This document shows, in pieces, positions 3,676 to 47,349 of a DNA stretch of 64,000 nucleotides. Source of the stretch: Erythrobacteraceae bacterium Alg239-R51 (GTDB taxonomy: Bacteria; Pseudomonadota; Alphaproteobacteria; Sphingomonadales; Sphingomonadaceae); the NCBI GenBank assembly GCA_947331495.1, contig CAMZOI010000001.1, forward strand, positions 620,001-684,000. The letters are read 5' to 3'. Numbering within the stretch: the first letter of the stretch is position 1; every line of letters begins with the position of its first letter. The notes beneath the pieces are model-generated. The model had not been told where the DNA came from. It worked only from the letters and a program-made list of their open reading frames with translations, and did not search any database. The position numbers were made by a program, and so were the translations under genes.

Positions 3676-4670
3676 GAAGCCGGAGTAGCGCCGGAAACCC
3701 CGGCTTGCGAAAAACTCGCCATTCCGAAAAGCGATAGCGCGGCGCGGATCATCGGCACGGCAAGCAATGCACCGGTGCCTTCGCCTAAACGCATTTCTAG
3801 ATCGAACAAGGGCTCGGCTTCTAACCAATCGAGCAACGCCCGATGTCCCTGTTCGGCCGAGCGATGCGCATAGACGAAAGCCTTTTCGCAGTCTGGTTCT
3901 ATCGCCCTTGCAAGGGCGGCGGCAGCGGTGGCGATAAACCCGTCGACGACCACCAGCTTATCCGATGTCCCGGCTCCGATCATCGCGCCCGCCATGGTGC
4001 CGATCTCGAAACCGCCGACCTCGGCAAGAGCCTCGGTTGGCGCAAGCTCTCCGGTGCGCGCCGCCGCGCGTTCGAGTATCTCTCTCTTATTGGAGAGCCC
4101 AGCATCGTCGAGACCCGTGCCGCGTCCGACCAACTCGGCGATCGAAATGGAACTCAGCTTGTGCGCCAGCAGGGCCGCTGCGGAAGTGTTGGCGATACCC
4201 ATCTCGCCAAAACAAGCGATTTTGCTCTCGATGCCAACTGCGAAATGTCGTCCTTGCGCGATTGCTTTGTTCGCCACATCCTTCGGCATTGCAGGCTCAC
4301 TGGAACTGTCGGCCGTGCCTCGTCCGAGTGACATGTCGACCAACCCATCCCGTCGCGCTGGCAAATGCATCATCCCACAATCGACGACGGTGACCGGTAT
4401 GCCGAACTGCGCTGCGATGGCATTCGCCGCAGCCCCACTTGCGAGGAAGTTGGCAACCATTTGGCCTGTAACTTCCTGAGGGAATGCCGAAACACCCTGT
4501 GCCGCGATGCCATGATCGGCAGCAAAGATGGTCAGCGATGCCGAGGCATTCTTGGGATTAGTGTCGCCGATGATCGCCGCGGCCTGAACAGCGAGGCTTT
4601 CAAGCCGCCCCATTGATCCAATTGGCTTAGTCTTATCGTCAATCAGACGCTGGAGGTCGGCTCGGGTCAT
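3672..4670 (-). CDS. cobT: Nicotinate-nucleotide-dimethylbenzimidazole phosphoribosyltransferase (CobT)
   Basis: Makes alpha-ribazole-5'-phosphate from dimethylbenzimidazole and nicotinate mononucleotide. Family signatures read in order: KTKPIGSMGRLE, FAADHGIAAQGVSAFPQEVT, a substrate-binding GEMGIANTSAAAL segment, VGRGTGLDD, and MRLGEGTGALLAVP near the end, which carries the catalytic glutamate. The ATG at 4670 gives 332 residues and a short N-terminal helix. ATGs at 4724 and 4748 are also in frame, and none has a clear ribosome-binding site, so the start is uncertain by up to 26 residues. It is the first gene of the cobTSCO operon; no riboswitch was seen upstream of it. No cobU/cobP homologue is in the window. 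Confidence 0.93.
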   Translation of the reverse strand: MTRADLQRLIDDKTKPIGSMGRLESLAVQAAAIIGDTNPKNASASLTIFAADHGIAAQGVSAFPQEVTGQMVANFLASGAAANAIAAQFGIPVTVVDCGMMHLPARRDGLVDMSLGRGTADSSSEPAMPKDVANKAIAQGRHFAVGIESKIACFGEMGIANTSAAALLAHKLSSISIAELVGRGTGLDDAGLSNKREILERAAARTGELAPTEALAEVGGFEIGTMAGAMIGAGTSDKLVVVDGFIATAAAALARAIEPDCEKAFVYAHRSAEQGHRALLDWLEAEPLFDLEMRLGEGTGALLAVPMIRAALSLFGMASFSQAGVSGATPAS

Positions 4671-4966
4671 ACTCTGCGCGTCTAGCGAATGCAGAATGAC
4701 TTTGGAACGGCGTGAACTGCGCATACGCACCGAGCGCTTTACGATCATCCAATAGCGGGGGGCAGGGCCATCCTATTAGCGCCAAGCTTCTCGCCATTGT
4801 GACTTGCCGAGCGAACGGCAGCTTTCGAGTCGAGACGCCTACGGTGTGAATGACCGAAATGAGGGCGCAAAGCGGACATCACGAACGCTGAGCTTGAAGA
4901 TGCTTGGGCTGCTAGACGCGAGCATCCTATAACCGGTTGTAAGTTCTTGCCGGTAGAGGTGCTATT

Positions 4967-5734
4967 ATGTCCAACTCACCAACATCGATGCAGTCGGACC
5001 GTGTCCAGAAGATCGTATTAACTAAAGATCAGATGAGGTGGCGCGCGTTTTGGGCAAACACTCAATGGCACGAGCATACTTTCCGCAAAGTCTTGCGTCG
5101 GATGGGTTTCGAACAGTCCTTCCCCATAGAACTGGCAGGCGGTCGCCGGTTCACAAATATAGCCGTAAGTGTGCTCGACTTCCAGCAGGCATCTGGATCG
5201 GGACCTCGGCTGCTCATTCCGATAGATCCCCAGTCCCATCCGGACGAGCGCGCGATTGAGGCATCGCTTGCCCGATCCATCGGACTGATGCTCGCGGACG
5301 CGGCGATGTACGATCAGATCTGGGTCGATACCTACAGCAAACTCCTGCCCCGGTTTGCAAAGAGGCCGAAAGCTTCCTTAGAACGGATGGATTTCGCGGA
5401 AGGGTCTCATGACGGCCTTATGCTGCATGCCGAGTTTCTTCGCCTCGATCACGATTTTTCGACAACCCGATCGAGGCGGATTGCTTCCGATATCGAAGAG
5501 CTGATCGAGGCGATTGACTTCGACCTTCGCGAACATGATCGCAATGTCGCTGCCCTGACAGTTGACGAATCGGGATCTCATCGAAGAAAGATTACAGGTC
5601 TTGCCGCCCATGTTCTCGAGCTCGCTGGCATGAGCCCGGACGACCTGCCGTTGCTCTTCAATGACGATGGTGATCAACCCTTCACACGGTCGATGGCTCT
5701 CTCCCGTTTTCCGCGGGGCGGTTCTATTGGATAA
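4967..5734 (+). CDS. Hypothetical protein, 255 aa
   Basis: Not recognised. The start ATG has a GAGG ribosome-binding site 8 bp upstream. The protein looks soluble and has no signal peptide or membrane segment. It has a basic, aromatic N-terminal third (WRAFWANTQWHEHTFRKVLRRMGF), a middle section rich in SIGLMLADAA-like helix, and an acidic helix (DIEELIEAIDFDLREHDRN) near residues 175-195. It stands alone between the cob operon, which runs the other way, and the first copy of the island repeat, so it may be part of the accessory zone. Gene-like codon use supports it being real; function unknown. Confidence 0.6.
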   Translation: MSNSPTSMQSDRVQKIVLTKDQMRWRAFWANTQWHEHTFRKVLRRMGFEQSFPIELAGGRRFTNIAVSVLDFQQASGSGPRLLIPIDPQSHPDERAIEASLARSIGLMLADAAMYDQIWVDTYSKLLPRFAKRPKASLERMDFAEGSHDGLMLHAEFLRLDHDFSTTRSRRIASDIEELIEAIDFDLREHDRNVAALTVDESGSHRRKITGLAAHVLELAGMSPDDLPLLFNDDGDQPFTRSMALSRFPRGGSIG

Positions 5735-6217
5735 GAGGAACGCTCGAGTGCTCGCTCGAATTGCGCAAAGGCCGGTGCTGGATCGATGGCAGAAGGGTCA
5801 TACTTTCGCACCCTTCCAATCTACCTGCGACAACCCTTTCGTCCTGTGTCGGACGGCCACTATGTACCTTGCTACAGATTGAAGGGTTGCAATTCGACGC
5901 GACTATAAAAAAGGTCCACGCGGACAGAGGTTGCATCGTAATGGAAATCGATATGCTTACGAATGAGTTCAGAACAAATCGCTTAAGATAGAATGAACAA
6001 ATCCCGTTCAGATTTTTGTTACACGCGGCCGTACGTCCATGAGCAGGTTGTGTCCGGCTACACCTAGCTAAATATTATGCTCTGGGTTGTGGTCGGTTTG
6101 GCAGGAACTGTCCCGAGAGCGGAACGGTAGCTGATGAGAAAGCCGAAGGCTCTTGGGGAACGAAGGATGCCGCTTGTCCCTTCCGCCGCGCAACACACTG
6201 CTGATCTGCTCTCGCAA
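5735..6217 (+). other. Intergenic region, relatively AT-rich, holding the first island repeat
   Basis: No convincing gene. The stretch 5880-6020 is clearly richer in A/T than its surroundings, and the 24-bp repeat sits at 6041-6064. Short open frames here have no ribosome-binding sites or family resemblance. Confidence 0.5.
6041..6064 (+). repeat. 24-bp direct repeat, left copy (attachment-site-like)
   Basis: GAGCAGGTTGTG followed by TCCGGCTACACC. It is identical to 14360-14383. Its first 12 bp, plus one T before them, match the point at which comM is broken (46629-46641). Left of this copy the sequence reads CAT, which is what an intact comM should have there, but the similarity to comM ends after those three bases. 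Confidence 0.85.
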
Positions 6218-7099
6218 CTAAACCGGGAATTCAGCCTTCTCCAAGGCCACCTCGGTTTCCTCCCAATTGACGACGACGATATGCTGGCTGCGCGCGGGCT
6301 GCTTCGCCGCATCGCCCAGCAGGGCCAGGCGCTTCAATACATAAAACAGCATGGCGTAGCGCACGGTGAGGATGGCCGAGCCGCCCTCCATGCCGAAGTC
6401 CTTGGCGACGACCGCCTTCTGGCTTGCGGTCAGGTCAGGATGCGGGCCGATCTCGACCTCGAACCGCTCCTGCCACAGCGCGTCCTGCAGCGAGTGCCCG
6501 CCGCCGTCACCCATCTCGCCGACGCCAAGAATACGCGGCAGGAGGAAGTCTTTGAACTTGTCGGTGACGTGGCAGTAGGCGCGCACGTGCCAGCGGAAGC
6601 CGTCATAGCCGAAGGCATGAGGCGTGATCCGCCGCCAGATTGGATCGGGTCGGTCCTTGCTCATCGACTGATAGTGGACATCGATCGAACGGTTATCGCG
6701 CACCGCGCTCAGCACCGTTCTCAGCACGGCCGAATCGATATCCCTGCGCGGCGTCAGCGCGATGTCGGTGTCGGGAAATTCGGTGATCCACGAATCAGAC
6801 AGATCGATTAGGCCTTCGGCCACCGAACGCAGGCGGGACAGATAGCCGTCGGGATCGGGCTTTAGAAAATGCGGCTCGAACTGCTCGCTGGCGACGTAGC
6901 GCTTGGCGCTCTTGTCGTAGAGCGCATTGTGCGGCGCACGCTCCTGATAGAGCGTCAAATCCTTCGACGCCTGCGGCACCGACACGTCGAACATGTCGGT
7001 GATGTCCGAGCGATTGACTCCGCCTTCCCAGAACAGGCGGAACTCGATGAACTCGAGTCGGCGCTCCACGCCCCACTTCAAGGTGGTCAGGCCGTCCAT
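6218..7099 (-). CDS. WYL-domain transcriptional regulator
   Basis: Predicted ligand-sensing repressor of the BrxR/CapW kind. Residues 10-52 form a winged-helix DNA-binding domain (NRSDITDMFDVSVPQASKDL). Residues 128-195 look like the WYL domain, with the RSIDVHYQSMS strand and the GFRWHVRAYCH motif, and the remainder is a WCX-like C-terminal extension. At 293 residues it has the length usual for such regulators. It is divergent from the AddB-like gene, 133 bp away, with a dyad between them, so it probably represses the nuclease-helicase operon until a cue, possibly a nucleic-acid fragment, is bound. The ligand is unknown. Confidence 0.85.
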   Translation of the reverse strand: MDGLTTLKWGVERRLEFIEFRLFWEGGVNRSDITDMFDVSVPQASKDLTLYQERAPHNALYDKSAKRYVASEQFEPHFLKPDPDGYLSRLRSVAEGLIDLSDSWITEFPDTDIALTPRRDIDSAVLRTVLSAVRDNRSIDVHYQSMSKDRPDPIWRRITPHAFGYDGFRWHVRAYCHVTDKFKDFLLPRILGVGEMGDGGGHSLQDALWQERFEVEIGPHPDLTASQKAVVAKDFGMEGGSAILTVRYAMLFYVLKRLALLGDAAKQPARSQHIVVVNWEETEVALEKAEFPV

Positions 7100-7122
7100 C
7101 CGAAATTGTCCTCCAGCGGATC

Positions 7123-7149
7123 CAGATAAAAACTATATGGACATATCTG
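7123..7149. promoter_or_regulatory. Possible operator (inverted repeat) between WYL gene and nuclease operon
   Basis: CAGATA at 7123-7128 and TATCTG at 7144-7149 form an inverted repeat with an inner TATATGGACATA partial dyad. It lies 24 bp upstream of the WYL gene start. The position suits autoregulation and control of the divergent operon, but a 6-bp arm is short. Confidence 0.35.
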
Positions 7150-7232
7150 CAATACGCGTTTACTTTCTATTCTCATCACGGTGTCGCGTCAAGCGGAACC
7201 GTGCCGAGGAACAGGGCGGAGAGACGAGGACG

Positions 7233-9896
7233 ATGACCTGCATGACCGACCGGCGGACCATCGTCGCCCACGGGCGCATGGCGATGCGTGAGCTTCGCCT
7301 CGACGCCGCACGCCACCGCCGACACGGCCTGCAGATCATGTCGTTCGAGCAGCTGGCAGCCCGCCTCGCCGGCGGCTTTTCGAGGCCGATCGACGACGAA
7401 AGCCTGCGCACCGCGATCCAGGCCGTCCTGCCGGACACCTCGCTCGGCGAACTCGAAAGCATCAAGCTCCTGCCCGGCATGGTCGACGCCTCGGCCGACA
7501 CCCTGCACAAGACCTGGCGCGCCAGCATCGACCTCGCTTCCCGCTCCCACGAGCATCCGCGTCTCGACTCAATTGCGCGACTCGAAGCGGCGGTGCTTGC
7601 GCAGCTGCCACCGGGCATGATGCGGCCCTGCGACCTGGTCGCGACCGCTTGTCAGCGTCTAGCTCACGCCAAGGCCGTTCTCGGACCGGTCGAGATCGTC
7701 GGCATCACCGAGCTGTCGCCGTGCTGGCGGCCGCTGCTTGCGGCGCTAACCGGCTGCACCCCTGTGACCTGGACGGCGGGCCCTCGGCCCACGCCGCCCT
7801 GGCTCGAGGCGACCGGCGTCACCATCGCGCGCGATGCGCCGCAGGCCCCGGAGGTTCGGGCGGAAAGCGCATCGACGGCGTATCATGAGGCCATCGAGGC
7901 GATCCGCTGGGCGCGTGCGCTACTGGCTTCGGGTGAGGCCCAGCCGGCGGAAATCGCCATCGCCGCCGCCTCGACGGCGGAATATGATGACCATTTCCTG
8001 TCGCTTCGCGCCGACGCGAACCTCGACCTGCACTTCATCCACGGGATCAAGGTCACCACCACTCGCGAGGGTCAGGCGGCCGCCGCGCTCGCCGACATCC
8101 TCGTTCGCGGCTTGTCGCAGACCCGGCTGCGCCGTCTCGCTGCGCTGTGCGGGTCCGAGGCCGGTCCGCTCCAGACGTTGCCGGCGGGCTGGTTGCGCAT
8201 TTTGCCGACCGAAGCCCCGCTTGCGTCGGTCTCGGCCTGGACGCGTCTGCTCGGGCGCCTGACCGCTGCGGACTGGCCTGACGAGCAAGAGCACACCCCT
8301 ACCTTGCGGGGCGTCGTTGAGCTTCTGGGCAAGGGCCACAGCGCCGCCGAGGAGATCGGCGCGGCGCTGCTCAGCGGCCGCGCCCTGGCAATCTGGCGCA
8401 AGGCGCTGCTGGCGGGGCCGACCGGATCGCTCGATACGACGCTGGAGAATCTCAAGCAGGACGACGGCCTCGAGGCCTGCGTCTCGGTCGCCTGGATGCC
8501 CGCCAGCGCCTTGGCGGCCTCGCCGCGCCGGTTCGTTCGCTTGATCGGGCTTAATTCGTCGCGCTGGCCGCGGAGCATCTCCGAAGACCGCCTGATCTCC
8601 GACCACGTCATTCCCACCGCCGATCTCGATCCCCTGCCGGTCGCGGCGGCCGATCGCCGGGACTTCGAGACGATCCTCGCCACGACCGAGCGCCAGGTGG
8701 TGCTGTCGCGTGCGCGCCGCGACGGTGAAGGGCGGCTCCTCGGCCGCAGCTCGCTGCTCGGCGCCTATGGCGAGGAGACCTACGTCCGCCGCAACGCGGT
8801 CCCAGCTCATGCCTTCAGCGAGACCGATCGGTTGATGGCGCGCCCGCCGGAGTTTGCCGACGCGCCCCAGGCGGTCGCCGCCACGGCCTGCTGGCGCAAC
8901 TGGCACCGCAAGGAGATTACGCCGCACGATGGCCTGGTGCGCGCCGAACACCCGCTCTTGTTGGCCATCCTCGACCGCACCCAGTCGGCAAGCTCGCTTC
9001 GCCTCCTCCTGCGCAGCCCGCTCGGCTTCGTCTGGCGCTACGCGATGCGGCTGCGAATGCCCGAAAGCGGCGCTGATCCTCTGGTTCTCGACGCCCTGGG
9101 CATGGGCGACCTCGTCCACATGACGCTCGATCTGGCGCTCCAGAAGTTGGAGGCCGACGGCGGTCTGGCCAACGCCGACGAGGCGCAGATCGAAGCCACC
9201 GTGCAGGAGGCCGCACGCGAGATCGCCAGGGTCTGGGAGAGCGAACGCGCTGTGCCGCCGGAGGTGATCTGGCGCCGGACGCTCGACGACGCCCGCATTC
9301 TGACGAGCCGCGCGCTCACCTATGACGACGAGCGGCTGCCGGACGCCCGCTCCTATGGAGAAGTGGCCTTTGGCGGCTTAGAACCCAAGTCGGACGCCGA
9401 CAGCCCCTGGGATTCCAACATCCCGGTCGAAATCCCCGACGCGGACTTCCGGATCAACGGCTACATCGACCGTCTCGACCTTTCGGGCGACGGCAAGCGC
9501 GCCCTGGTCCGGGACTACAAGACCGGGCGCCCGCCTAGGGAGGATATCAGCGTCGACGGCGGCCGCGAGTTGCAGCGCTGCCTCTACGCCTTTGCCGTCA
9601 AGGCGCTGCTCGGATCCGAGATCTCGATCAGCGCCTCTTTGCTCTTCCCGCGCGAGCAGGTCGATCTCCAGCTCTCCGATCCGGAAGCCACCCTGGTCGA
9701 GATCACCGGCTATCTGCAGGCGGCGCGCGCCAACCTGACCGCCGGGCACGCCCTCATCGGGCCCGACACCGGCGGAACATATGACCACCTCGCCTTCGCC
9801 CTGCCGGCGAACGCTGGCGCCACCTACTGCAAACGCAAGCTGCCCGCCGCTACCGATATGTTCGGCGACGCCGCGCAAGTCTGGGAGGCCCAGTGA
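7233..9896 (+). CDS. AddB-like PD-(D/E)XK nuclease / inactivated helicase, 887 aa
   Basis: Resembles the AddB/RecC-type partner of an AddAB helicase-nuclease: a long alpha-helical body without intact helicase motifs, then a C-terminal RecB-type nuclease domain. The nuclease has GYIDRLD, then VRDYKTG near residue 765, then ELQRCLY, the QxxxY motif of this family. The four-cysteine iron-sulphur set of classical AddB is not evident; only a lone Cys occurs in the TYCKRKL stretch. The start ATG 7233 follows GACGAGG closely; 7242 is an alternative. It overlaps the next gene by one base (TGATG). Being in a repeat-bounded module, it is probably not the housekeeping AddB. Confidence 0.8.
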   Translation: MTCMTDRRTIVAHGRMAMRELRLDAARHRRHGLQIMSFEQLAARLAGGFSRPIDDESLRTAIQAVLPDTSLGELESIKLLPGMVDASADTLHKTWRASIDLASRSHEHPRLDSIARLEAAVLAQLPPGMMRPCDLVATACQRLAHAKAVLGPVEIVGITELSPCWRPLLAALTGCTPVTWTAGPRPTPPWLEATGVTIARDAPQAPEVRAESASTAYHEAIEAIRWARALLASGEAQPAEIAIAAASTAEYDDHFLSLRADANLDLHFIHGIKVTTTREGQAAAALADILVRGLSQTRLRRLAALCGSEAGPLQTLPAGWLRILPTEAPLASVSAWTRLLGRLTAADWPDEQEHTPTLRGVVELLGKGHSAAEEIGAALLSGRALAIWRKALLAGPTGSLDTTLENLKQDDGLEACVSVAWMPASALAASPRRFVRLIGLNSSRWPRSISEDRLISDHVIPTADLDPLPVAAADRRDFETILATTERQVVLSRARRDGEGRLLGRSSLLGAYGEETYVRRNAVPAHAFSETDRLMARPPEFADAPQAVAATACWRNWHRKEITPHDGLVRAEHPLLLAILDRTQSASSLRLLLRSPLGFVWRYAMRLRMPESGADPLVLDALGMGDLVHMTLDLALQKLEADGGLANADEAQIEATVQEAAREIARVWESERAVPPEVIWRRTLDDARILTSRALTYDDERLPDARSYGEVAFGGLEPKSDADSPWDSNIPVEIPDADFRINGYIDRLDLSGDGKRALVRDYKTGRPPREDISVDGGRELQRCLYAFAVKALLGSEISISASLLFPREQVDLQLSDPEATLVEITGYLQAARANLTAGHALIGPDTGGTYDHLAFALPANAGATYCKRKLPAATDMFGDAAQVWEAQ

Positions 9897-12800
9897 TGAC
9901 CGCCGCAAGCAAAGCCCTGCGCGACGACAGTGCCCGCCGCGCTGCGATCAGCGTCCACGACCGGTCCATCTTGGTGGAGGCCGGCGCGGGTTCGGGCAAG
10001 ACGGCCGTCATGGCCGGCCGCATCGCCGCGATGCTGGCCGAAGGGGTCGCGCCCAAATCGATCGCGGCCGTCACCTTCACCGAACTGGCGGCGAGCGAAC
10101 TTTTGATCCGCGTCCGCGACTTCGTCGCCGACCTCGTAGTGGGCACGGTCCCGACCGAATTGCGGATCGCTTTTCCGGACGGTCTGTCGGAAATCCACAA
10201 GGCCAACCTCGCGGCGGCCTCGGCAGCGATCGACGAGATCACCTGCTCGACGATCCACGGCTTCTGCCAGCGCCTGATCAAGCCCTATTCGGTCGAAGCC
10301 GACATCGACCCGGGCGCCCACGTGATGGACAGCAACCAGGCCGACCTCGCTTTCATCGAGATCGTCGACATCTGGCTGCGCGAGCAGCTTTCCGGCGGCC
10401 AGGCCGGCATCATCGCCGAAATGGTGTTGCAAAGCCCCGGCGAAACCGTCGGGCTGATCCATAAGATCATCGCCAACCTGCGCAAGCGGCGCACCGTGTC
10501 GGCGCCGCCCGCGACGCCGCTCGCGCCGCATCTGCGCGCCTTCCATGATGCGACCGCGGCCTTCTCTGACTTCATCCAGACCGCGCCCGCGGTCGAGGAC
10601 GAGACCGCGACGTTCGCCGAGCGGCTCGCCGGGATGGCCCAAGCGATGGAGGATGCGGCGACCGCCGAAACGCCGGCCGGACTCATCCGGCTGCTGGTGA
10701 CGCCGCCGCACCCCGATCTTTGCACCAAGAGCGGCTCGTTTCTGGCCTTCAGAAAGAAGGGCAAATGGGTGGAGGCCGCCAAGCGCGAGGGCCTGGCCAA
10801 AGCCGATGGCGACCGCCTCAACGCGGCGGCCGAGGGCCACTACGCGGCGTGCTGTCAGGCGTGGCAGCTCCTACTCCAGAATGTCGCCAGCCACGTCCTG
10901 GCCGATCTGATCGCGCAGGCGCAGCCGGTGCTGGAGCGGTTCCGGGACTACAAACGTTCGGCCGCCTTGCTCGATTTCGACGACCTAATCTTCGCCGCGC
11001 GGGACCTGCTGCGCGATCATGACGAGGTCCGCCGCGCGCTGAGCGCGCGCTTCACACGGGTTCTCGTCGACGAATTCCAGGACACCGACCCGCTGCAGAC
11101 CGAAATCTTCTGGCGGCTATGCGGGGAGCCGCCCGCCGGACGCGCGACCGCCGAGTGGAGCGAGTTCCAGATCCGCCCCGGCGCTCTGTTCCTGGTCGGC
11201 GACCCCAAGCAGGCGATCTATCGCTTCCGCGGCGCCGATGTCAGCGCCTATGTCCGGGCGCGCGACGCCTTCATCGCGCAGGATGCCGACAGCGTCCTGT
11301 CGATTTCCACCAACTTCCGCTCCTGCGCGCCAATCCTCACCTATGTGAACGAGCGCTTCGAAACGCTGCTATCGAGCGACGGCCAGCCGGGTTTCACCGC
11401 ACTCGACCCGTTCCATTCCAACCGGGGCGAGGCTCCCTGCGTCGCGGCGCTGGATGTCACCGTCGCCGACGAGAACGGCAAGGCGAGCGCCGAGCAGCAA
11501 CGCGATGCGGAAGCCGAAGCTGTCGCCGAGTTGTGCGCCCGCCTGATCGGCAGCGAGATTATCATCGATCGTCGCTCCGATGCCAGCCGGGTCTGCCGGC
11601 CGGGTGACATCGCCCTGCTCGCGCCGACCGGAAGCGACCTGTGGCGTTATGAAGAGGCCCTTGAGCGCCACGGCATTCCGGTCGCCACCCAGGCCGGCAA
11701 AGGCCTGTTCAGGCGACAGGAGATCCAAGATCTCATCGCGCTGACCCGCATCCTTGCGGATCGCCGCGATACGCTCGCGTTGGGCGCGCTCTTGCGCGGC
11801 CCTCTGGTCGGTTTGACCGAGGAAGAACTGCTCGACATCATCTGGGCGCTGCCCCGGTCCGAAGAATATCCCGAAGCCCTGCCGCGCCTCGACCTCGGCG
11901 TGGAGACCAGTGCGATCGCCCACCCGTTGGCGCGCTCGGTGATCGAAAAGCTGCAAGTCCTCAATCGCCGGACCAACAATACCACGCCGCACAACCTGCT
12001 GTCGCAAGCGGTCGACGTGATGCGGGTGCGGCCGATGCTGCTCGCCCGCCACCGGGGCCAGGCCGAGCGGGCGCTCGCCAATGTCGATCTTTATCTCAGC
12101 CTGACCTCCGCTTTCGCGGTTCGGGGACTGCGCGCCTTTGCCGAGACCATGACCGCTGCATGGACCGATGAAGCCCGCGCCGTCGAGGGGCGGCCCGACG
12201 CGCAGGAAGAAGCCGTTGCGCTCTACACCATGCACGCGGCCAAGGGCCTTGAGTGGCCGATCGTGGTGCCGGTGAACACGATGACAGGCATCATGCCGGC
12301 CGAGAACGCGGTGACTGATCGCGAAAGCGACGCCTTCTACTGCCCGGTTTTCGGCGTGAAACCGGCCGGCTATGACGAAGTGCGCGACGCGGAAAACGCC
12401 GAGCTCGATCGCGAGCGCGTCCGCCTCTGGTACGTCGCCGCCACTCGGGCGCGCGAGCTGCTGGTTCTGCCTCGCCTCGACGCCTCGCCGTCGAAGTCGG
12501 CCTGGATTTCGTTGCTCGACCTCTCGCTCGGCGACCTCCCGGCGCTCGATGTGGCTCATCTGCCGCTGGAGATGGGCGCCGTGGCGGCGGGCGAAGGCAA
12601 CCAGCAGACCCGCGAAAGCTTTGCAGTGGAAGCCGCCGCTATCGCCGAGCGCCATCGCCGCTTGACCTGGCTGGCGCCCAGCCGTGACGAAAGCAGCGTC
12701 GGCCCAGTGCTTACCTCGGAAGCGGTGGAAATCTGGGCGGCGCGCGACGAGCGCAAGCCCGATGACGAGGCCAAACGCCCCAGCATACAGGGGGGACGCG

Positions 12801-13291
12801 AGCGCGGCCTGATCCTGCACAAGCTTCTCGAAGAGGTGTTGACCGGCGAGACCGCTCCAGACAGCGCCGCGCTGACCGATCGGGCGCGCTCGCTCATCGC
12901 GGCGCTCGGCTGGCCGGCGGTCGAAGACCCGTCACAGGGCCTTTCACCCGCTGAACTTGTCGGCTGCGTCTCCCGCACGCTTGCCTTGCCCGAAATCGCA
13001 GAGCTTCGTCCCGTCCTCAGCCCGGAGCTCCCGGTCTATGCGTCAACATTCCTCAATGAGGTTGAGCAGGCGTCCGCCGGCATCGTCGACGCCATCGGCT
13101 GGGCCCCCGATGGGACGCCGCAGGTGGTCATCGACTGGAAGAGCGACGTCCAGCCAACGCCTGAGACGGTCGATCACTACCGCGCTCAGGTGCGGGCCTA
13201 TCTGGATATGACCGGCACCACGCGCGGCCTGATCGTGCTGGTGACGACCGGCGAAATCATCGCTGTAGCGCCGTCGCCGCTCGAGGCCTAG
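9896..13291 (+). CDS. AddA/RecB-like UvrD-family helicase with C-terminal nuclease, 1131 aa
   Basis: Superfamily 1A DNA helicase fused to a RecB-type nuclease. Motifs in order: Walker A GAGSGKT (30-36), the TFTELAA motif Ia, STIHGFC, VLVDEFQDTDPLQ Walker B (about 388-400), VGDPKQAIYRFRGAD (about 434), STNFRS (about 473), LYTMHAAKGLEWP (about 776), WYVAATRARELL (about 844). The nuclease reads GIVDAIGW...VVIDWKSD near 1080, followed by HYRAQVRAYL with the QxxxY motif. So both subunits of the pair carry nuclease motifs, as in AddAB. The ATG at 9896 overlaps the stop of the previous gene by one base; a GTG at 9893 is possible. It probably acts as a complex with its neighbour on DNA ends. Confidence 0.85.
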   Translation: MTAASKALRDDSARRAAISVHDRSILVEAGAGSGKTAVMAGRIAAMLAEGVAPKSIAAVTFTELAASELLIRVRDFVADLVVGTVPTELRIAFPDGLSEIHKANLAAASAAIDEITCSTIHGFCQRLIKPYSVEADIDPGAHVMDSNQADLAFIEIVDIWLREQLSGGQAGIIAEMVLQSPGETVGLIHKIIANLRKRRTVSAPPATPLAPHLRAFHDATAAFSDFIQTAPAVEDETATFAERLAGMAQAMEDAATAETPAGLIRLLVTPPHPDLCTKSGSFLAFRKKGKWVEAAKREGLAKADGDRLNAAAEGHYAACCQAWQLLLQNVASHVLADLIAQAQPVLERFRDYKRSAALLDFDDLIFAARDLLRDHDEVRRALSARFTRVLVDEFQDTDPLQTEIFWRLCGEPPAGRATAEWSEFQIRPGALFLVGDPKQAIYRFRGADVSAYVRARDAFIAQDADSVLSISTNFRSCAPILTYVNERFETLLSSDGQPGFTALDPFHSNRGEAPCVAALDVTVADENGKASAEQQRDAEAEAVAELCARLIGSEIIIDRRSDASRVCRPGDIALLAPTGSDLWRYEEALERHGIPVATQAGKGLFRRQEIQDLIALTRILADRRDTLALGALLRGPLVGLTEEELLDIIWALPRSEEYPEALPRLDLGVETSAIAHPLARSVIEKLQVLNRRTNNTTPHNLLSQAVDVMRVRPMLLARHRGQAERALANVDLYLSLTSAFAVRGLRAFAETMTAAWTDEARAVEGRPDAQEEAVALYTMHAAKGLEWPIVVPVNTMTGIMPAENAVTDRESDAFYCPVFGVKPAGYDEVRDAENAELDRERVRLWYVAATRARELLVLPRLDASPSKSAWISLLDLSLGDLPALDVAHLPLEMGAVAAGEGNQQTRESFAVEAAAIAERHRRLTWLAPSRDESSVGPVLTSEAVEIWAARDERKPDDEAKRPSIQGGRERGLILHKLLEEVLTGETAPDSAALTDRARSLIAALGWPAVEDPSQGLSPAELVGCVSRTLALPEIAELRPVLSPELPVYASTFLNEVEQASAGIVDAIGWAPDGTPQVVIDWKSDVQPTPETVDHYRAQVRAYLDMTGTTRGLIVLVTTGEIIAVAPSPLEA

Positions 13292-13642
13292 TCGCCTGCG
13301 GTAGGGGGAAACCGATGCTGACCCGCGCGAGCGCCGCAAAACCTGCTCGGAACTGAGACGACGCCCGACGACCTCGCCAAACTGCAATTCCGATTGCAGC
13401 CATAGCGCCTGGCGACCTATCCGCAGAACGGTCTAATCGTCGCACAGCGCACTCCTTTGCAATGAGGGCTAAAATCTAAAGAGTGGCAGTTTCCTAGATC
13501 AGCAAGTCTAACTCTAACCGGCAGAGATTAGGATGCAAAGCGGCCGTGGCCGACTGATGATCTTCTTAAGAACGAAAGGAGGTGGCTCTCTGGACGAGAG
13601 CGGAAAAAGGCATGCGATCCCCGCGGCCTATGGAGACTTGAA
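13292..13642 (+). other. Intergenic region after the AddAB-like pair
   Basis: I see no supported gene. A strong AAGGAGG at 13575-13582 precedes only very short open frames that use GTG or CTG as start and end at or just before 13646. The next gene starts at 13643 with its own GGAG. Confidence 0.4.
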
Positions 13643-14161
13643 ATGACTCAGATTGAACAGCAGAACCGCATCGCCAACTTCTTTGCCGCCCTTGCTCGCC
13701 TGCTGAGCGGCCAGTCCGGACGCTTCACTGAATTCCGAGACAAGGTGGACATAATGCTGAGCGGTACGGCTCCTCACGCTTTCGGCCTGATGCAGTTCGC
13801 TTCCCGGGTCCAGACAACTGGCCGCCCGCTCCTCTGGGTTCATCAGTCTGCAGAATGCCCTGTTCCGCAGATCGGCCTGATCGCGCAGATGGGAGGGGGG
13901 ATGCACTACATCGAGAGCTGCATGCTCTGCCTGACTGGCGAAGACGACCGCGCGACCCTCGTACCAGACGGCTTCAATCTGGGCGCGTACAGATTCGACG
14001 ATGCGCTCGATCTGCACCACATCACGGAAGCACCGGCCTCGACCTTCGAAGCGGCAAATGGTGACATGGTGAGGGCCTACAACCGACTTATGGCGATCCA
14101 AGCCGAGCAGTGGGAGCGGGGTGATACCTTCGACCTGCCTTACCTCGCCCAGGCGGCCTAA
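13643..14161 (+). CDS. Hypothetical protein, 172 aa
   Basis: Not recognised. A GGAGACTTGA segment just before the ATG acts as ribosome-binding site. The protein is soluble, with an amphipathic N-terminal helix (RIANFFAALARLLSG), a central VPQIGLIAQMGGGMHYIESCMLCLTG stretch with two nearby cysteines, and an aromatic C-terminus. It lies inside the repeat-bounded module and in the same direction as the AddAB-like genes, 351 bp downstream of them, and it is followed closely by a perfect palindrome. It may be a cargo gene with its own promoter. Confidence 0.6.
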   Translation: MTQIEQQNRIANFFAALARLLSGQSGRFTEFRDKVDIMLSGTAPHAFGLMQFASRVQTTGRPLLWVHQSAECPVPQIGLIAQMGGGMHYIESCMLCLTGEDDRATLVPDGFNLGAYRFDDALDLHHITEAPASTFEAANGDMVRAYNRLMAIQAEQWERGDTFDLPYLAQAA

Positions 14162-14173
14162 ATTTCATAGTGC

Positions 14174-14199
14174 GCCGGATCGTCCATGGACGATCCGGC
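14174..14199. repeat. 26-bp perfect palindrome (hairpin)
   Basis: The stretch from GCCGGATC through to GATCCGGC, centred on CCATGG, equals its own reverse complement over 26 bp. It starts 12 bp after the stop of the 172-residue gene. There is no T-run on either side, so it is not a standard intrinsic terminator; a bidirectional hairpin terminator or a protein-binding site is possible. Confidence 0.8.
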
Positions 14200-14359
14200 A
14201 TCGCCACACAGGATCTATCTTCGTTGGTCGATTGCCCTGAGCATAACGGTTTTGGCGCGAATAACTTGACGCTTCTTAACCAGCGAAGGTTAACGGCAGT
14301 GATTGAACCGTTAGTATTCGGCCGATTGCGGGCTACGCGATAAGCGGTTGGTCGGATTG

Positions 14360-14383
14360 GAGCAGGTTGTGTCCGGCTACACC
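14360..14383 (+). repeat. 24-bp direct repeat, right copy (attachment-site-like)
   Basis: Exact match to 6041-6064. To its left stands AAGCGGTTGGTCGGATTG, which is not shared with the 6041 copy but is clearly related to the bases left of the degenerate copy at 15719. It marks the boundary between the AddAB-like module and the larger island. Confidence 0.85.
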
Positions 14384-14936
14384 CGTACGGGTGAATGTTG
14401 TGGAGGGCCTCTAGAAATGGCGGGAAGTGGGCCGTGACCGGACTGCCCACTGTTGGAATGGTCATCTCGTGAAAGCAGACATCCCCTCATAATCATCGCA
14501 GCTGCTTGAGGCGGTAGCGATCATGCTGTTGGGGGGGAGGGGGAGATGAGCTCGGGCGACCTCTAGAGCAGTGTTCGACACTGTTAAAAGCGACAGTGTC
14601 TCCTGCGCCGTCCTGGTTGTTGCCTCGTGCGCGGCTGCCGCATGCGAGATAGATCTGGCTTACGGCATCTTAACGCATACAGTCAGGAATCGGAACTGGA
14701 AGAGCATGCTGAAATGTTGCGCGCACTGGCGCCGCGCGCGCTCCCTCGATCTCGCATTCAAACGGGCGCTCGACGCGGTCGAAAAGTGGATCGGCGAAAT
14801 GAAGGTCAGATAGGCAATAGAAGACAACCTAGCAGTCGCTGCGAGACAGGGGGACAAGCAGCCTTTCCGCCAATGCAACAAAATAAATCTGAAAAGCTGA
14901 TCCGTTGTGTCCATATCTTTGTTGAAGGAGGCTGGA

Positions 14937-15548
14937 ATGCGAAAAGTGCGCGAAAAGATTATGGCCCGGGCAATGATCAGCAGAAGCTGTGCGAACTTCC
15001 TTTCCGACGTCGATCTCAAGCCGGGGATCGCTCAGTCCGGAGGTGCCTTGAACAAGCACCAGCACCAGAAGATAAGGTTTCGGTCCAAGTACGATTGTTG
15101 GTCAGAAACGGACATCGTGCTCGAAAAACGGGGCTCGTTATTAGCTGGATCGATGGAGCATGCACGGTTCGCAAAACGAGCAACGCTTGACCTCGAGTAC
15201 AGGTGGTTTCGCTTCCGTGAAAGCAAGAACGGCTTTTCCATGCTTGCAATCTGGGACAAGGAGCTTCCCGCGACGATCTGTGCTGCAGGCTCCTCGGGGA
15301 ACTACCGTTTGCTCGACCTAGTAGATTTTTCCGATTTCAAACCCTTGTTCTTCGTGCGTTCGAACCCGGTAGTCCATTCCTTAAAAAATGTTACGAGAAT
15401 GCGCCGTAGTCCCGAAATGCAAAGGTCTGGAGGGGAGCGACGGCGATGTAAAGCTCTTCTCATTACCATGAAGGATGAATGGTCGAAAAGTTTCTGGGGC
15501 TATTGGTCTCCTGAAGCAGGATATCTATCGACCATGGACGCTCCGTGA
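14937..15548 (+). CDS. Hypothetical protein, 203 aa, tentative
   Basis: Not recognised. The main support is a strong AAGGAGG ribosome-binding site five bases before the ATG at 14937 and an uninterrupted frame to 15548. Codon use is less GC-rich than in the neighbours, in keeping with transferred DNA. The protein is basic, with an N-terminal KVREKIMARAMISR helix and a later aromatic section (YRWFRFRESK, WSKSFWGYWSPEAGY). Nothing suggests a function. From 14384 to 14936 I see no other gene I would support. Confidence 0.4.
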   Translation: MRKVREKIMARAMISRSCANFLSDVDLKPGIAQSGGALNKHQHQKIRFRSKYDCWSETDIVLEKRGSLLAGSMEHARFAKRATLDLEYRWFRFRESKNGFSMLAIWDKELPATICAAGSSGNYRLLDLVDFSDFKPLFFVRSNPVVHSLKNVTRMRRSPEMQRSGGERRRCKALLITMKDEWSKSFWGYWSPEAGYLSTMDAP

Positions 15549-15903
15549 GCGAGAGCGCGACGCGAGAGCAATTAGCGCATGATGCCATGCGGGTGCCTGA
15601 TAAAAAATCTGGCAGGCCGATTATTCAAGCAGTTCTTGATTGACCAAGGTAACGTCAGCATATGAGCTGTTCGTCTCCGCCAATTGCAATTTACGCAATG
15701 GGCGGTCGGTCGCATTGCAGCAGGTTTGGTATGCCTACACTCATAGAGATTTATGCAGTGGACGGTTATCCCATCAGCTGAAAATACCAGTTGCAAGACG
15801 GGATTCCGTTGCGGGGCATCCAGGCCGTTCGGAGTTGAAGGAGAAGCGATCCCTTGGGTTTGGAGCGGCCTTGCTGACCTCGCTTGCGCTCCGCAAATCC
15901 TGT
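15549..15903 (+). other. Intergenic region holding the degenerate repeat copy
   Basis: No supported gene. The only structure seen is the diverged attachment-like copy at 15719-15740 with a related left flank at about 15698-15718. Confidence 0.45.
15719..15740 (+). repeat. Degenerate third copy of the attachment-like repeat
   Basis: AGCAGGTTTGGTATGCCTACAC matches the 14361-14382 copy at 17 of 22 positions and keeps both ends (AGCAGGTT and CTACAC). The left flanks also match (CGGTCGGTCGCATTG against CGGTTGGTCGGATTG), so relatedness extends over about 38 bp. Confidence 0.6.
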
Positions 15904-16761: not shown

Positions 16762-16763
16762 GC

Positions 16764-17945: not shown

Positions 17946-18364
17946 CCGGCATCGTCCAGGAAGGTTTGCACACGAAGCCCCATAGCACTCTCGTCCCTAG
18001 TCTCGCATTCCCAGATCACCAAGACGTCCCAACCCAGTTTCCGCAACTTCGCGATGTTTCGTTCATCGCGTTCACGATTGCCCTCGAGCTTGGCCACCCA
18101 GAATTCGACGCGGGACTTGGGTATCCGCGCGAGCTTGCAGGAAGGAGCCTCGTGCCGGTGCCAGAAACATCCGTGCACGAAGATGACCTTCCGCCGAGGG
18201 CCGAAGACGAGATCCGGGCTGCCGGGAAGCGAACGTCGATGCAGGCGGTAACGATAGCCCATGCGGTGGACCAGGCGTCGAACTCGCAGCTCCGGCTTCG
18301 TGTCCTTCCCGCGTACGCGCGCCATGCGCGCGGAGCGTTCCAATGGGTTGAGGCTGTCCACCAT
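17942..18364 (-). CDS. vsr: Very short patch repair endonuclease Vsr
   Basis: Nicks 5' of T in T:G mismatches that arise when 5-methylcytosine deaminates, limiting mutation at methylase sites. Signatures: a start of MVDSLNPLERSARMARVRGKDTKPE type, PGSPDLVF with the catalytic aspartate, VHGCFWHRHEAPSC with the zinc ligands, and KLEGNRERDERN. The ATG at 18364 gives 140 residues, the family length; the frame extends 24 residues further up without resemblance. It is first in the operon with the methyltransferase, as is usual for Dcm-type systems. Confidence 0.93.
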   Translation of the reverse strand: MVDSLNPLERSARMARVRGKDTKPELRVRRLVHRMGYRYRLHRRSLPGSPDLVFGPRRKVIFVHGCFWHRHEAPSCKLARIPKSRVEFWVAKLEGNRERDERNIAKLRKLGWDVLVIWECETRDESAMGLRVQTFLDDAG

Positions 18365-23097: not shown

Positions 23098-23099
23098 CC

Positions 23100-44961: not shown

Positions 44962-46578
44962 TCAGGCGTGAGAGGTCCGTTCGTCGTCGATATCACACAT
45001 CGACCATTCGGTACTGCGGTTCACTTCGTCGTAGTGAATGCTGATCACCCGCTCGCCCGCCACTTCCATCTCCACGCCCAGCGGATCGGGGCCGTGGAAC
45101 GTGAGCCGATCGATGAGTGCGTGGGTCGCTGCCATGACCTTCGACCTGGCCTCGAACCTTGTCTTCTCGTCCTCGTGATTTAGCGAGGACCATAGTTCAC
45201 CCACGCGCCTCTGATGTTCTTCGGCGCTGGGGGCGTGCACCAGTTCGAGCAGGCGTTCCCGAGCATCGTCGAGCTCATCGCCGGCCTTGTCGGCGATCGT
45301 GGCAAGTTCGGTCCAGAGGGTCTTCGCTTCGCTCCTGTTAGTCTCCACCGCTAGCCGCAGAGCTGAATCTGCTCGCGTCTTCGCGACATCCCAGAGCCGT
45401 TCAAGTCGAGCGACTTCGATTTCGATTTCGCGGACTTCGGATTGTGGAGCCGAATCGTGATCTTGAAGAGCCTCGTGGATTATTGGAGCGAGGATCCCCT
45501 CTTCCCAGATCGCATAATTGAAGTGGAAGCCGTTGGAGCATCCCATGCCGCGCTGATAACCGTCGCATACGAGGTAGTCCTCGTTGACCCACGAGCCGTC
45601 GGCACGCTGCTTTCTTCCCTTGCCACGGAAGGTCATCTTGCACCCGCATGTCCCGCATCGAGCAAGGCCGGAGAAGACGTTCACCAACCTGCGGCCGCGC
45701 CCTGTGTAGCGGCGAGTTCGTTCGCGCATCGCGGCGCTGGCTCGCTTGTGCAGGTCGGCATCTACGACGCTCGGATAATAGCCGAGGACGACATCGCCGG
45801 TAACCTGTCGCTTAGAGCCCCGCGCCTTGCGGGCGAGATGCAACTCACCGACGACTGCGGGATTGCGGAGGATCTTCTGCACGTAGCTGGCATGCCATGC
45901 ACCCGATCGGCCGAAGGTCGGAACGCCGTCCAGGTTCAGATTCTTGGCGATATGCTGCTTTCCGAAGCCGGCGGCCGTCTCCTCGAAGATGCGTCGGACT
46001 ATGGCGGCCCGTTCCGGTATCGGGATAAACACCGGGGGCGAACCCACGACATCGAGCCAAGCAGGTGCTCGGCGGGTCATGACGAACTTTTCGCCCGCAT
46101 TCAGGCGACGACGCTTGGAAGCCCACGCCGCAGAGAGCCGCTGGCTCTTCTTCTCGCTTTCCTCGTGGCTGAGCTGCGCCTTCACGACGACTTCGATGAT
46201 GGAAGCCATATCGAAGTTGCCCTTGCTGTATCGCCGGGCTCCATCGACAGTCGCGAGTATCACGCCCGCCTCCGTCAGGTTCATCATCCACATGAAGACC
46301 CGACCGGGCTCCTGGCGGGATAGGCGATCGAGCTTTTCGACCAACAGCACCACCCCATCGGGGTAGCGTCCGGCCTCGACGTCTTGCACAAATCCACCTA
46401 GGGAACCAGTCGATGCGTGCTCTCCCTTGAAGGCGCTGATCCCGTCGTCGACAAGTTCTTCGAGGACAGTCCAGCCCTGTTCAAGCGCATGGCGCCGACA
46501 ATCCTCTCTCTGACGCTCGAGAGTCGAACCCTTACCCTGCTCAGAACTCGACCAGCGGATGTAGATGACGCAGTCCAT
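44962..46578 (-). CDS. Large serine recombinase / integrase, 538 aa
   Basis: Site-specific integrase. The catalytic domain starts VIYIRWSSSEQGKGST with the nucleophilic serine among residues 10-12. LVEKLDRLSRQEPGR follows near 80-95. A recombinase domain comes next, then a zinc ribbon (RCGTCGCKMTF...CDGYQRGMGC) near 310-350, and finally a coiled-coil motif of charged heptads. The start lies 46 bp from the break in comM, the standard place for an integrase next to its attachment site, so this is the likely enzyme that inserted the island. Confidence 0.9.
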   Translation of the reverse strand: MDCVIYIRWSSSEQGKGSTLERQREDCRRHALEQGWTVLEELVDDGISAFKGEHASTGSLGGFVQDVEAGRYPDGVVLLVEKLDRLSRQEPGRVFMWMMNLTEAGVILATVDGARRYSKGNFDMASIIEVVVKAQLSHEESEKKSQRLSAAWASKRRRLNAGEKFVMTRRAPAWLDVVGSPPVFIPIPERAAIVRRIFEETAAGFGKQHIAKNLNLDGVPTFGRSGAWHASYVQKILRNPAVVGELHLARKARGSKRQVTGDVVLGYYPSVVDADLHKRASAAMRERTRRYTGRGRRLVNVFSGLARCGTCGCKMTFRGKGRKQRADGSWVNEDYLVCDGYQRGMGCSNGFHFNYAIWEEGILAPIIHEALQDHDSAPQSEVREIEIEVARLERLWDVAKTRADSALRLAVETNRSEAKTLWTELATIADKAGDELDDARERLLELVHAPSAEEHQRRVGELWSSLNHEDEKTRFEARSKVMAATHALIDRLTFHGPDPLGVEMEVAGERVISIHYDEVNRSTEWSMCDIDDERTSHA

Positions 46579-46610: not shown

Positions 46611-46641
46611 GTGTAGGGCTATCTTATCTGAGCAGGTTGTG
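46611..46641. other. Right attachment site (attR-like) at the island/comM junction
   Basis: GTGTAGGGCTATCTTATCT (46611-46629) belongs to the island; GAGCAGGTTGTG (46630-46641) belongs to comM. The same 12 bp opens both 24-bp repeats at 6041 and 14360, whose other end is CTACAC, the inverse of GTGTAG. Joined, the arms would make an attP of about 42 bp with inverted ends. Confidence 0.65.
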
Positions 46642-47349
46642 CGCGCCAGCAGCGGCGATCTCCAACGCGCGCTTCGCGGTTTCCTGACCCTTGACCTGTT
46701 TCAGATTTCCGCCCGTCGCGGTGCTTTCGACGATCCCCGGTTCGGGGTCGGCCAGGCGTTGTGTTCCCTTCAGGTGGTTGAGCAGGCTGGCGAGGTCCGG
46801 AGCAGCGACCACGGGCACCTCGCTGGCCCAACGTGCTTCGGAACCCTGAGCCCTCGGACAAATCAGCCCGATCTCCTGCTCGCTTGCATGCATCGCTGCC
46901 AGCAATACGCCGGGTGAAGGAACCACGCGTGCATCCAGCGCCAGTTCGCCAACTGCGATCCAGTCGCCCAACTGTTCGGCGTCGGTCACGCCCATCGCCG
47001 CGAGCAGCGCCAATGCGATCGGCAAGTCGTAGTGCGAACCTTCCTTCGGCAGATCGGCGGGCGAAAGATTGATGGTGATCCGCTTGGGCGGCAATGCAAG
47101 GCCCATGGCGGACAGAGCGGCGCGCACCCGCTCCTTGCTTTCGCCCACGGCCTTGTCGGCCAACCCGACGATGTTGAATTTCGGCAGTCCCGGCGCGACC
47201 GAGCATTGCACTTCCACCCCGCGCGCTTCGAGGCCGAGATAAGCGACCGTTCTGACTAGTGCGACCAGAGCTAACCCCCACCCCTGCGTGTTCGACCGCC
47301 GGTGATGACGGCCCGCCTTCATTTTGTCGAGAGGAAAGCCGGTTTCCAT
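46624..47349 (-). pseudogene. comM: comM (YifB, Mg-chelatase-like) N-terminal half, interrupted by the island
   Basis: ComM is a hexameric helicase that helps integrate incoming DNA in natural transformation. The visible 241 residues match its N-terminal half: RTVAYLGLEARGVEVQC, APGLPKFNIVGLADKAVGES, INLSPADLPKEGSHYDLPIAL and VKGQETAKRALEIAAAGAHNLL. After HNLL the family has MIGPPGSGKS (Walker A), but here the frame reads R-stop. So the ATPase domain is cut off exactly before the P-loop. The remaining half is not in this window. The true start is uncertain, since the first 25 residues are not family-like. Confidence 0.92.

What the first reader, a model, noticed from the sequence alone, without database searches (positions are those of the whole stretch)
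6218..13291. WYL regulator plus AddAB-like pair on a repeat-bounded mini-element: candidate defence system
Both subunits carry PD-(D/E)XK nuclease motifs with QxxxY, one has a complete UvrD-type helicase, and a WYL repressor like those controlling BREX and CBASS sits divergently. The AddB-like protein lacks an evident iron-sulphur cysteine set. The direct repeats argue for transfer rather than a housekeeping AddAB. I know of no named defence system with exactly this composition.
Basis: partly seen in the sequence, partly recalled or inferred. Interest (0 to 1): 0.7.

Follow-up and report, generated by a model that had tools for sequence, protein, structure and literature searches.

The report
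Mobile second AddAB in defence islands
A bacterium carries, besides its normal DNA-repair enzyme AddAB, a distant, switch-controlled copy on a mobile island; relatives of this copy sit beside many different anti-phage systems, so it is probably a portable phage-DNA-destroying module rather than a repair gene.

Summary
Window 6218-13291 encodes a WYL regulator of the CapW/BrxR family, divergent from AddB-like and AddA-like genes with intact motifs. It is not the housekeeping enzyme: a true AddAB elsewhere passes both NCBIfam cut-offs, which the window pair fails. AddB-like occurs in 2 of 60 genus and 9 of 385 class genomes. A 10.9-kb block with the module is 99.89% identical in another species whose comM region is only 76-79% identical. 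The 24-nt repeats belong to a family of attachment-like sites in an 84-kb island in comM with a large serine recombinase at one end. By family labels, 60 of 80 related loci carry named defence genes (Zac, Hma, BREX, type III RM, Shango, SIR2-HerA); 0 of 21 housekeeping AddA loci carry those families. TATATGGACA recurs in 30 of 35 WYL/AddB intergenic regions. Most likely it is a WYL-regulated, transferable helicase-nuclease defence module. No description was seen in the paper searches made. Function and mechanism are inferred, not tested.

The parts
6218..7099 (-). WYL-domain transcription regulator, CapW/BrxR family (293 aa)
   Evidence: Pfam WYL; CapW 7tb6 E 1.5e-63, BrxR 7t8k E 3.6e-37; immediately divergent from AddB-like in 44 of the 47 loci that hold the WYL family, of 80 loci
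7134..7143 (.). TATATGGACA, candidate WYL operator or shared promoter element (within the palindrome ATATGGACATAT, 7135-7146)
   Evidence: present in 30 of 35 WYL/AddB intergenic regions; highest 8-mer count in 20 shuffles was 7; position checked
7233..9896 (+). AddB-like nuclease subunit (887 aa): no Walker A, PD-(D/E)XK nuclease domain
   Evidence: PDDEXK_1; profile comparison with housekeeping AddB, Prob 97.1, E 7e-11 over residues 434-854; catalytic nuclease residues 97-98% conserved in 81
9893..13291 (+). AddA-like UvrD-type helicase with C-terminal PD-(D/E)XK nuclease (1132 aa)
   Evidence: Pfam; best solved match B. subtilis AddA 3u44 E 7.9e-34; helicase motif positions nearly all 95-100% conserved in 70
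6041..6064 (+). 24-nt attachment-like repeat, copy 1
14360..14383 (+). 24-nt attachment-like repeat, copy 2
15720..15740 (+). related site GCAGGTT-N8-CTACAC; the right end of the shared block lies at it
4848..15743 (.). block 99.89% identical in G059 (same genus, other species), unrelated sequence beyond
13643..14161 (+). 172-aa ORF of unknown family inside the repeat-bounded unit; the surrounding 13562-14366 has a second, 88.8% copy in the G059 island
4967..5734 (+). 255-aa ORF, no family match, in the shared block
14907..15548 (+). 213-aa ORF, no family match, in the shared block
44962..46578 (-). large serine recombinase at the right end of the comM island
   Evidence: Resolvase, Recombinase and Zn_ribbon_recom domains; homologues beside the comM N-half of G046, G015, G059, G056, G025 and beside the C-half of G016
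46624..47349 (-). N-terminal half of interrupted comM (island right junction at about 46632)
   Evidence: ChlI and start of Mg_chelatase; C-terminal half at G000:C1:581839-582396

Best explanation
This is a mobile, WYL-regulated defence module built on a divergent AddAB helicase-nuclease. Shown by sequence: three genes in divergent arrangement, intact motifs, a clade separate from housekeeping AddA, recent transfer on a comM island, and linkage to named anti-phage systems in most of the related loci examined. Inferred: in uninfected cells the CapW/BrxR-type repressor holds both promoters down at the TATATGGACA site. Infection or DNA damage relieves repression. AddAB-like then loads on free double-stranded ends of phage DNA (linear genomes, or ends cut by neighbouring restriction-type systems), unwinds with AddA and degrades both strands with its two nuclease domains. 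Because it is so different from the host AddAB, it may also escape phage inhibitors aimed at the host enzyme. In the window it stands without the usual partner operon, beside an Eco29kI-type restriction-modification system.
For: Second, true AddAB in the genome: addA_alphas 986 bits (cut-off 860.75) and addB_alphas 727 (cut-off 486.5), against 281 for the window AddA-like and no addB_alphas hit for the window AddB-like. Tree: 20 module AddA and 20 housekeeping AddA on two sides of a branch, 100/100. Patchy: 2 of 60 genus genomes, 9 of 385 class genomes, 64 of 72,556 plasmids of which 40 are called conjugative. Recent transfer: 10.9 kb at 99.89%, while the stretches around the island's comM ends run 75.7-78.6%. 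Named defence families in 60 of 80 loci against 0 of 21 housekeeping AddA loci (Fisher p 1e-10). WYL of CapW/BrxR type, directly divergent in 44 of 47. Conserved intergenic motif 30 of 35. Catalytic motifs conserved in 70 AddA-like and 81 AddB-like. Window neighbour Eco29kI-type endonuclease with a C5 methylase and Vsr.
Against: No activity has been tested. 20 of 80 loci showed none of the named families; 10 of these are 15 kb or longer and also lack the multi-ubiquitin/E1 genes. 33 of 80 have no WYL of this family in the DNA held; 16 of those had no named system at the first count. One full-length locus (L168) has AddB-like without AddA-like behind it, and in L114 and L118 the AddA-like gene is in two pieces. 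The system names were transferred by clustering from representatives scanned with PADLOC, not from a scan of every locus. The 80 loci (of 116 relatives) were found with two short peptide patterns, so they are biased to close relatives, and close relatives share flanks by descent. 0 of 50,697 phage records hold the AddB-like protein.
Confidence: 0.68

Rival explanations
1. AddAB-like is an unrecognised core part of an extended Zac system (WYL, AddB, AddA, an optional helicase, ZacA, ZacB, ZacC), and the window copy is a cut-down remnant.
For: Zac genes in 33 of 80 loci, often directly behind AddA in the order ZacA, ZacB, ZacC; in a class sample of 385 genomes, 4 of the 5 genomes with ZacB also have AddB-like, hypergeometric p 7e-7.
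Against: 47 of 80 loci show no Zac gene in the DNA held, and Hma, BREX, type III RM or Shango genes stand beside AddAB in many of them. The window genome has no ZacB match at E 1e-30, yet the module is intact and 99.9% identical in two species. Of the 4 shared genomes only 2 have the two genes on one contig within 10 kb (the other 2 are drafts of 200 and 250 contigs).
Confidence: 0.3
2. It is a repair or recombination enzyme of the mobile elements themselves (helping plasmids and islands survive breaks), with defence genes as fellow cargo.
For: AddAB enzymes are known for break repair (established knowledge); 64 plasmids carry the AddB-like protein, 40 called conjugative.
Against: Control by a CapW/BrxR-type regulator, repeated pairing with different defence operons at the same place behind WYL, and the host already has its own AddAB.
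Confidence: 0.15
3. It is a backup or decoy AddAB that works when a phage inhibits the host AddAB/RecBCD with an end-binding protein, comparable to the logic proposed for Gabija.
For: Very large divergence from the housekeeping enzyme (tree); phage end-binding proteins that block RecBCD are described in the Gabija preprint (PMC12407980, abstract and outline seen).
Against: No direct evidence here; inhibitor sensitivity cannot be read from sequence.
Confidence: 0.2
4. It is simply the housekeeping AddAB.
For: Same domain layout.
Against: A separate AddAB passes both NCBIfam cut-offs; the window AddB-like protein has no match in 58 of 60 genus genomes.
Confidence: 0.01

Closest known systems
AddAB / RexAB / AdnAB / RecBCD double-strand-end helicase-nucleases
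   Same: AddA: UvrD helicase plus C-terminal PD-(D/E)XK; AddB: helicase-like protein without Walker A plus PD-(D/E)XK; best solved or fold matches are AddA and AddB of B. subtilis (the AddB model is poor)
   Different: Fails the alphaproteobacterial AddA and AddB equivalog cut-offs, separate long-branch clade, N-terminal half of AddB-like not aligned to housekeeping AddB, patchy, mobile, WYL-regulated
CapW / BrxR WYL regulators of CBASS and BREX
   Same: Same family over nearly the full length, placed directly upstream of the defence operon
   Different: Here it stands between AddBA and whichever system lies on the other side, or alone with AddBA as in the window
Gabija (GajAB), a nuclease-helicase defence system
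   Same: UvrD-type helicase working with a nuclease subunit
   Different: No GajA-type (OLD/TOPRIM) gene; the AddA-like protein only shares the helicase core with GajB
Zac and Hma systems of PADLOC
   Same: Frequent neighbours of the module
   Different: The AddB-like protein matches no PADLOC model; the window has no partner operon of this kind. What Zac does was not found in print
comM-inserting Tn6022/Tsy elements (Faure et al. 2023, PMC10293859, passages seen)
   Same: Use comM as target
   Different: They hit the Walker B region through TnsF; this island splits comM at the Walker A/HNLL region and carries a large serine recombinase
SCC-type composite islands with Ccr serine recombinases (recalled)
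   Same: Large serine recombinase at the island end, repeated attachment-like sites in tandem; weak similarity to CcrB (34.5 bits, cut-off 900)
   Different: Different target gene; no second copy of this recombinase found in C1:580001-620000 or among the window genes scanned, and how the internal units move is not shown

Membership tests
Housekeeping AddAB (alphaproteobacterial) | AddA over the TIGR02784 cut-off of 860.75 bits | tested here: not met
   280.7 bits; the genome's other AddA scores 986.1
Housekeeping AddAB (alphaproteobacterial) | AddB over the TIGR02786 cut-off of 486.5 bits | tested here: not met
   no TIGR02786 hit at E up to 0.001; the genome's other AddB scores 726.9
Housekeeping AddAB (alphaproteobacterial) | present in nearly all relatives | tested here: not met
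   AddB-like in 2 of 60 genus genomes, own included
AddAB superfamily (architecture) | AddA with full UvrD motifs and a C-terminal PD-(D/E)XK nuclease | tested here: met
AddAB superfamily (architecture) | AddB homologue without Walker A, with nuclease domain, encoded directly before AddA | tested here: met
   AddA-like directly downstream in 74 of 80 loci, of the 6 misses 5 end within 1.6 kb of the end of the DNA held
AddAB superfamily (architecture) | four-cysteine Fe-S cluster in AddB (recalled for B. subtilis) | tested here: not met
   canonical C-terminal cluster absent; the genome's own housekeeping AddB lacks it too
AddAB superfamily (architecture) | Chi recognition | not testable with these tools
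   needs biochemistry
CapW/BrxR WYL regulator | sequence similarity over the whole protein to solved CapW/BrxR | tested here: met
   7tb6, query residues 3-283, E 1.5e-63
CapW/BrxR WYL regulator | binds an operator at the defence promoter | not testable with these tools
   candidate motif in 30 of 35 intergenic regions
Gabija | GajA OLD/TOPRIM nuclease next to GajB | tested here: not met
   no such hit in the module
Zac | ZacA, ZacB, ZacC genes present | tested here: not met
   no ZacB match in the genome at E 1e-30; no Zac hit among the window genes scanned
Tn6022/Tsy comM elements | insertion at the Walker B region of comM by TnsF | tested here: not met
   comM of G000 is split near profile position 20-32, the Walker A/HNLL region; a TnsF gene was not searched for

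The most novel reading that the evidence does not exclude
A transferable AddAB serves as a common DNA-shredding plug-in: one WYL switch and one conserved operator connect the same helicase-nuclease to many otherwise unrelated defence systems (BREX, Hma, type III RM, Zac), which supply marking or cutting while the module destroys the DNA ends.
Probability: 0.35. Interest if true: 0.82.

Novelty: new variant of a known kind. Interest (0 to 1): 0.62.

Why it matters
How BREX, Hma and similar systems finally dispose of phage DNA is largely open (recalled). A helicase-nuclease that keeps recurring beside them under a shared regulator would be a ready candidate for that step and would show a repair enzyme recruited into immunity. 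It also gives a testable target: the WYL-AddBA intergenic motif. The comM island suggests how such modules move between species, with a serine recombinase and tandem attachment-like sites.

Tried and rejected
Housekeeping AddAB: rejected. Gabija: rejected, only the UvrD core is shared. The AddB-like protein as part of phage genomes: 0 of 50,697 records. Structure prediction of the AddB-like protein gave a poor model (mean pLDDT 58.1, pTM 0.35); its best PDB matches are AddB chains (3u4q_B, E 8.9e-13) but at TM 0.20, so it is used only as weak support. A profile search of AddB-like against PDB sequences found nothing credible. The attachment-like pattern at 2 mismatches is mostly chance genome-wide (control counts of the same order); in the window at up to 3 mismatches it gave 13 matches against 8.4 expected. 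Only matches at 0-1 mismatch with conserved arms are used. A tyrosine recombinase was sought: the PF00589 search listed 8 matches in G000, none between C1:582 and 667 kb; the island has the large serine recombinase. My first idea that the N8 of the repeats derives directly from comM was dropped: intact comM of relatives mostly reads GTGCCCGC there, not GTGTCCGG. How the internal units without a recombinase move remains unexplained.

Literature: full-text searches for AddAB with defence terms, WYL, Zac, DUF6361 and BREX gave no paper describing this module among those listed: 20 of 740, 10 of 30, 9 of 9, 0 found, 8 of 8, 15 of 134. Passages were read by term search in PMC12458937, PMC12948488, PMC9122601, PMC10910872, PMC12839542, PMC8565338, PMC10293859, and the abstract and outline of PMC12407980; no paper was read whole. 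PMC10910872 mentions one AddB-like nuclease with CRISPR-like repeats; whether it is related was not tested. comM with serine recombinase terms: 20 of 224 and 20 of 121 listed, none whose listing describes this insertion. Most subscription papers are not in that library.

Full report
What is there. Window 6218-13291 holds three genes: a WYL regulator on the minus strand (6218-7099) and, divergently, an AddB-like gene (7233-9896; the longer ORF from 6993 would overlap the WYL gene) and an AddA-like gene (9893-13291) overlapping it by four bases. The WYL protein matches solved CapW (7tb6, E 1.5e-63) and BrxR (7t8k, E 3.6e-37) over almost its whole length. AddA-like has the UvrD helicase domains and a C-terminal PD-(D/E)XK domain; AddB-like has a PD-(D/E)XK domain and no Walker A. 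In 70 AddA-like proteins (the window's and 69 of the 80 loci, those with an adjacent ORF over 1000 aa) the Walker A, Ia, II, III, V and VI positions are nearly all 95-100% conserved (lowest 81 and 87%), and the nuclease aspartate, DWKSD and the Q and Y of QxxxY 100%; in 81 AddB-like proteins the catalytic nuclease residues are 97-98% conserved.

It is not the housekeeping enzyme. A second pair at G000:C1 about 1268760-1275250 scores 986.1 and 726.9 bits against the alphaproteobacterial AddA and AddB equivalog models (cut-offs 860.75 and 486.5). The window AddA-like protein scores 280.7 and the window AddB-like protein has no hit to the AddB model. In a tree of 20 module and 20 housekeeping AddA proteins the two groups fall on two sides of one branch with 100/100 support (very long branch, midpoint root for drawing only, and the tool warns of long branches). 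The module clade has short inner branches although the rows come from many alphaproteobacterial families, Alcaligenaceae, Rhodanobacteraceae, an acidobacterium and a Poribacteria bin, which fits frequent transfer. Matches to the AddA-like protein (housekeeping AddA or other UvrD helicases) occur in 98 of 99 genomes, while the AddB-like protein is in 2 of 60 genus genomes, 9 of 385 class genomes, 64 of 72,556 plasmids (40 conjugative by prediction) and 0 of 50,697 phages.

It moved recently. In G059, another species of the genus, window 4848-15743 is present at 99.89% identity with unrelated sequence on both sides. The five longer aligned stretches around the two comM ends of the same islands are 75.7-78.6% identical; one of them runs across the right junction and includes part of the recombinase gene. 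Three short further matches (75, 809 and 89 bases, 83-89%) are at the attachment-like sites and the 172-aa ORF. G056 has only the right part: from window 12630 to at least 26021 at 99.99%, so its AddA-like gene is truncated. A relative at 72-73% protein identity lies in G074, another family of the order, beside HmaA, TmtA-like, SIR2 and HerA genes.

The repeats and the island. The exact 24-nt repeat occurs only twice in the genome at up to 3 mismatches. It belongs to a family of sites, GCAGGTT-N8-CTACAC with conserved arms on both sides, found at 0-1 mismatch in the stretches examined of G000, G059 and G056. The comM gene of G000 is split: its C-terminal half ends at C1:582396 and its N-terminal half begins at C1:666612 (window about 46612), so the window up to about 46.6 kb lies in an 84-kb island in comM. 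In the same table, whose tail is not listed, I count at least 13 of 60 genus genomes with both comM parts broken in this same Walker A/HNLL region, and at least 7 with both parts broken near profile position 120, by position the Walker B region (my reading of the rows, drafts included). That second region is where Tn6022/Tsy insert (PMC10293859, passages). A large serine recombinase starts about 50 bases inside the right junction of G000. It has homologues (37-100% identity) beside the comM N-half in G046, G015, G059, G056 and G025; in G016 the homologue (37%) lies beside the C-half instead. In G000 the outer ends carry GTGTAGG and CCTACAC as inverted arms around the GAGGTT core, as I would expect of such a recombinase (inference). 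The internal sites lack the GTGTAGG arm, and how the internal units move is unexplained.

Defence context. A profile of AddB-like found 116 relatives in named genomes; the best 80 loci were kept. AddA-like is directly downstream in 74 of 80 (of the 6 misses 5 are near the end of the DNA held; L168 is a real exception) and a WYL gene of the same family is present in 47, directly divergent in 44. Clustering of all ORFs gave recurrent partner families; representatives were identified with Pfam and PADLOC as HmaA, HmaB, HmaC, BREX (BrxA, BrxB, BrxC, PglX), type III RM, Shango SngC, ZacA, ZacB, ZacC, SIR2-HerA, and an unnamed set with multi-ubiquitin and a ThiF/E1 protein. By these families 60 of 80 loci have at least one named system (Zac 33, Hma 24, BREX 10, type III RM 7, Shango 6, SIR2-HerA 4), 66 of 80 with the multi-ubiquitin set; among loci of at least 19 kb it is 48 of 59. 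The same search on 21 housekeeping AddA loci (20 of 13.7-19.9 kb fetched, and the window genome's own, 14 kb) found only AddA itself, in 20 of 21, and none of the partner families. Fisher p is 1e-10, but the loci are related and the controls come from other genomes of the order, so this is a guide only. Of the 20 loci without a named family, 10 are 15 kb or longer and also lack the multi-ubiquitin set. L171 is one of these; it has two genes of the same size and place as the SbcC/SbcD-like pair of L109 (1263 and 410 aa), but those two were not scanned themselves.

Regulation. TATATGGACA is in 30 of 35 WYL/AddB intergenic regions (34 loci in which the anchor was found, and the window); the highest count of any 8-mer in 20 mononucleotide shuffles was 7. 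Descent inflates this, but the motif recurs beside BREX-, Hma-, type III- and Zac-type neighbours alike. In the window it lies at 7134-7143, inside the palindrome ATATGGACATAT.

Reading. The evidence favours a WYL-controlled helicase-nuclease that degrades phage DNA ends, used as a portable module. Steps shown: gene content, motif conservation, separation from housekeeping AddAB, transfer, defence linkage, shared intergenic motif. Steps inferred: repression and induction, end loading, degradation, cooperation with neighbours. The strongest rival is that AddAB belongs to an extended Zac system: 4 of 5 genomes with ZacB in a class sample of 385 also hold AddB-like, though only in two of them are the two on one contig within 10 kb. 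The window genome itself has no ZacB match; its nearest defence genes are an Eco29kI-type endonuclease, a C5 methylase and Vsr.

Limits. No function was tested. The 80 loci were picked through two short peptide patterns and are biased to the closer clade; more distant plasmid relatives (38-60% identity) were not examined for context. PADLOC labels come from representatives. The AlphaFold model of AddB-like was poor.

Noticed in passing
window 15904-18436: Eco29kI-type endonuclease, C5 cytosine methylase and Vsr directly right of the shared block: a type II restriction-modification set.
   Followed up: partly
window 18540-22573: HSP90-like ATPase protein followed by a ResIII helicase with Mrr domain, a candidate further defence pair in the same island.
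   Followed up: no
window 36103-38339: AAA_15/DUF3696 ATPase and a GmrSD-N protein matching PADLOC NsnA with 389 bits.
   Followed up: no
window 23085-28741: PIN_8 protein, 37-kD nucleoid-associated protein (NA37) and a DUF2779 protein in the island.
   Followed up: no
window 2923-4748: Cobalamin genes (CobS, phosphoribosyltransferase) lie inside the comM island, left of the shared block: non-defence cargo.
   Followed up: no
L152:2527-9780 and similar loci: UvrD helicase with an IrrE-like peptidase domain, multi-ubiquitin, ThiF/DUF6791 and DUF6527 genes upstream of AddBA in several loci: an unnamed ubiquitin-like set.
   Followed up: partly
L105:16028-19420: A ResIII helicase family of about 1113 aa directly behind AddA in many of the 20 of 80 loci that hold it, with only weak PADLOC matches.
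   Followed up: partly
G056:C12:224-1580: A tyrosine recombinase domain (near the contig start) close to one of the attachment-like sites.
   Followed up: no
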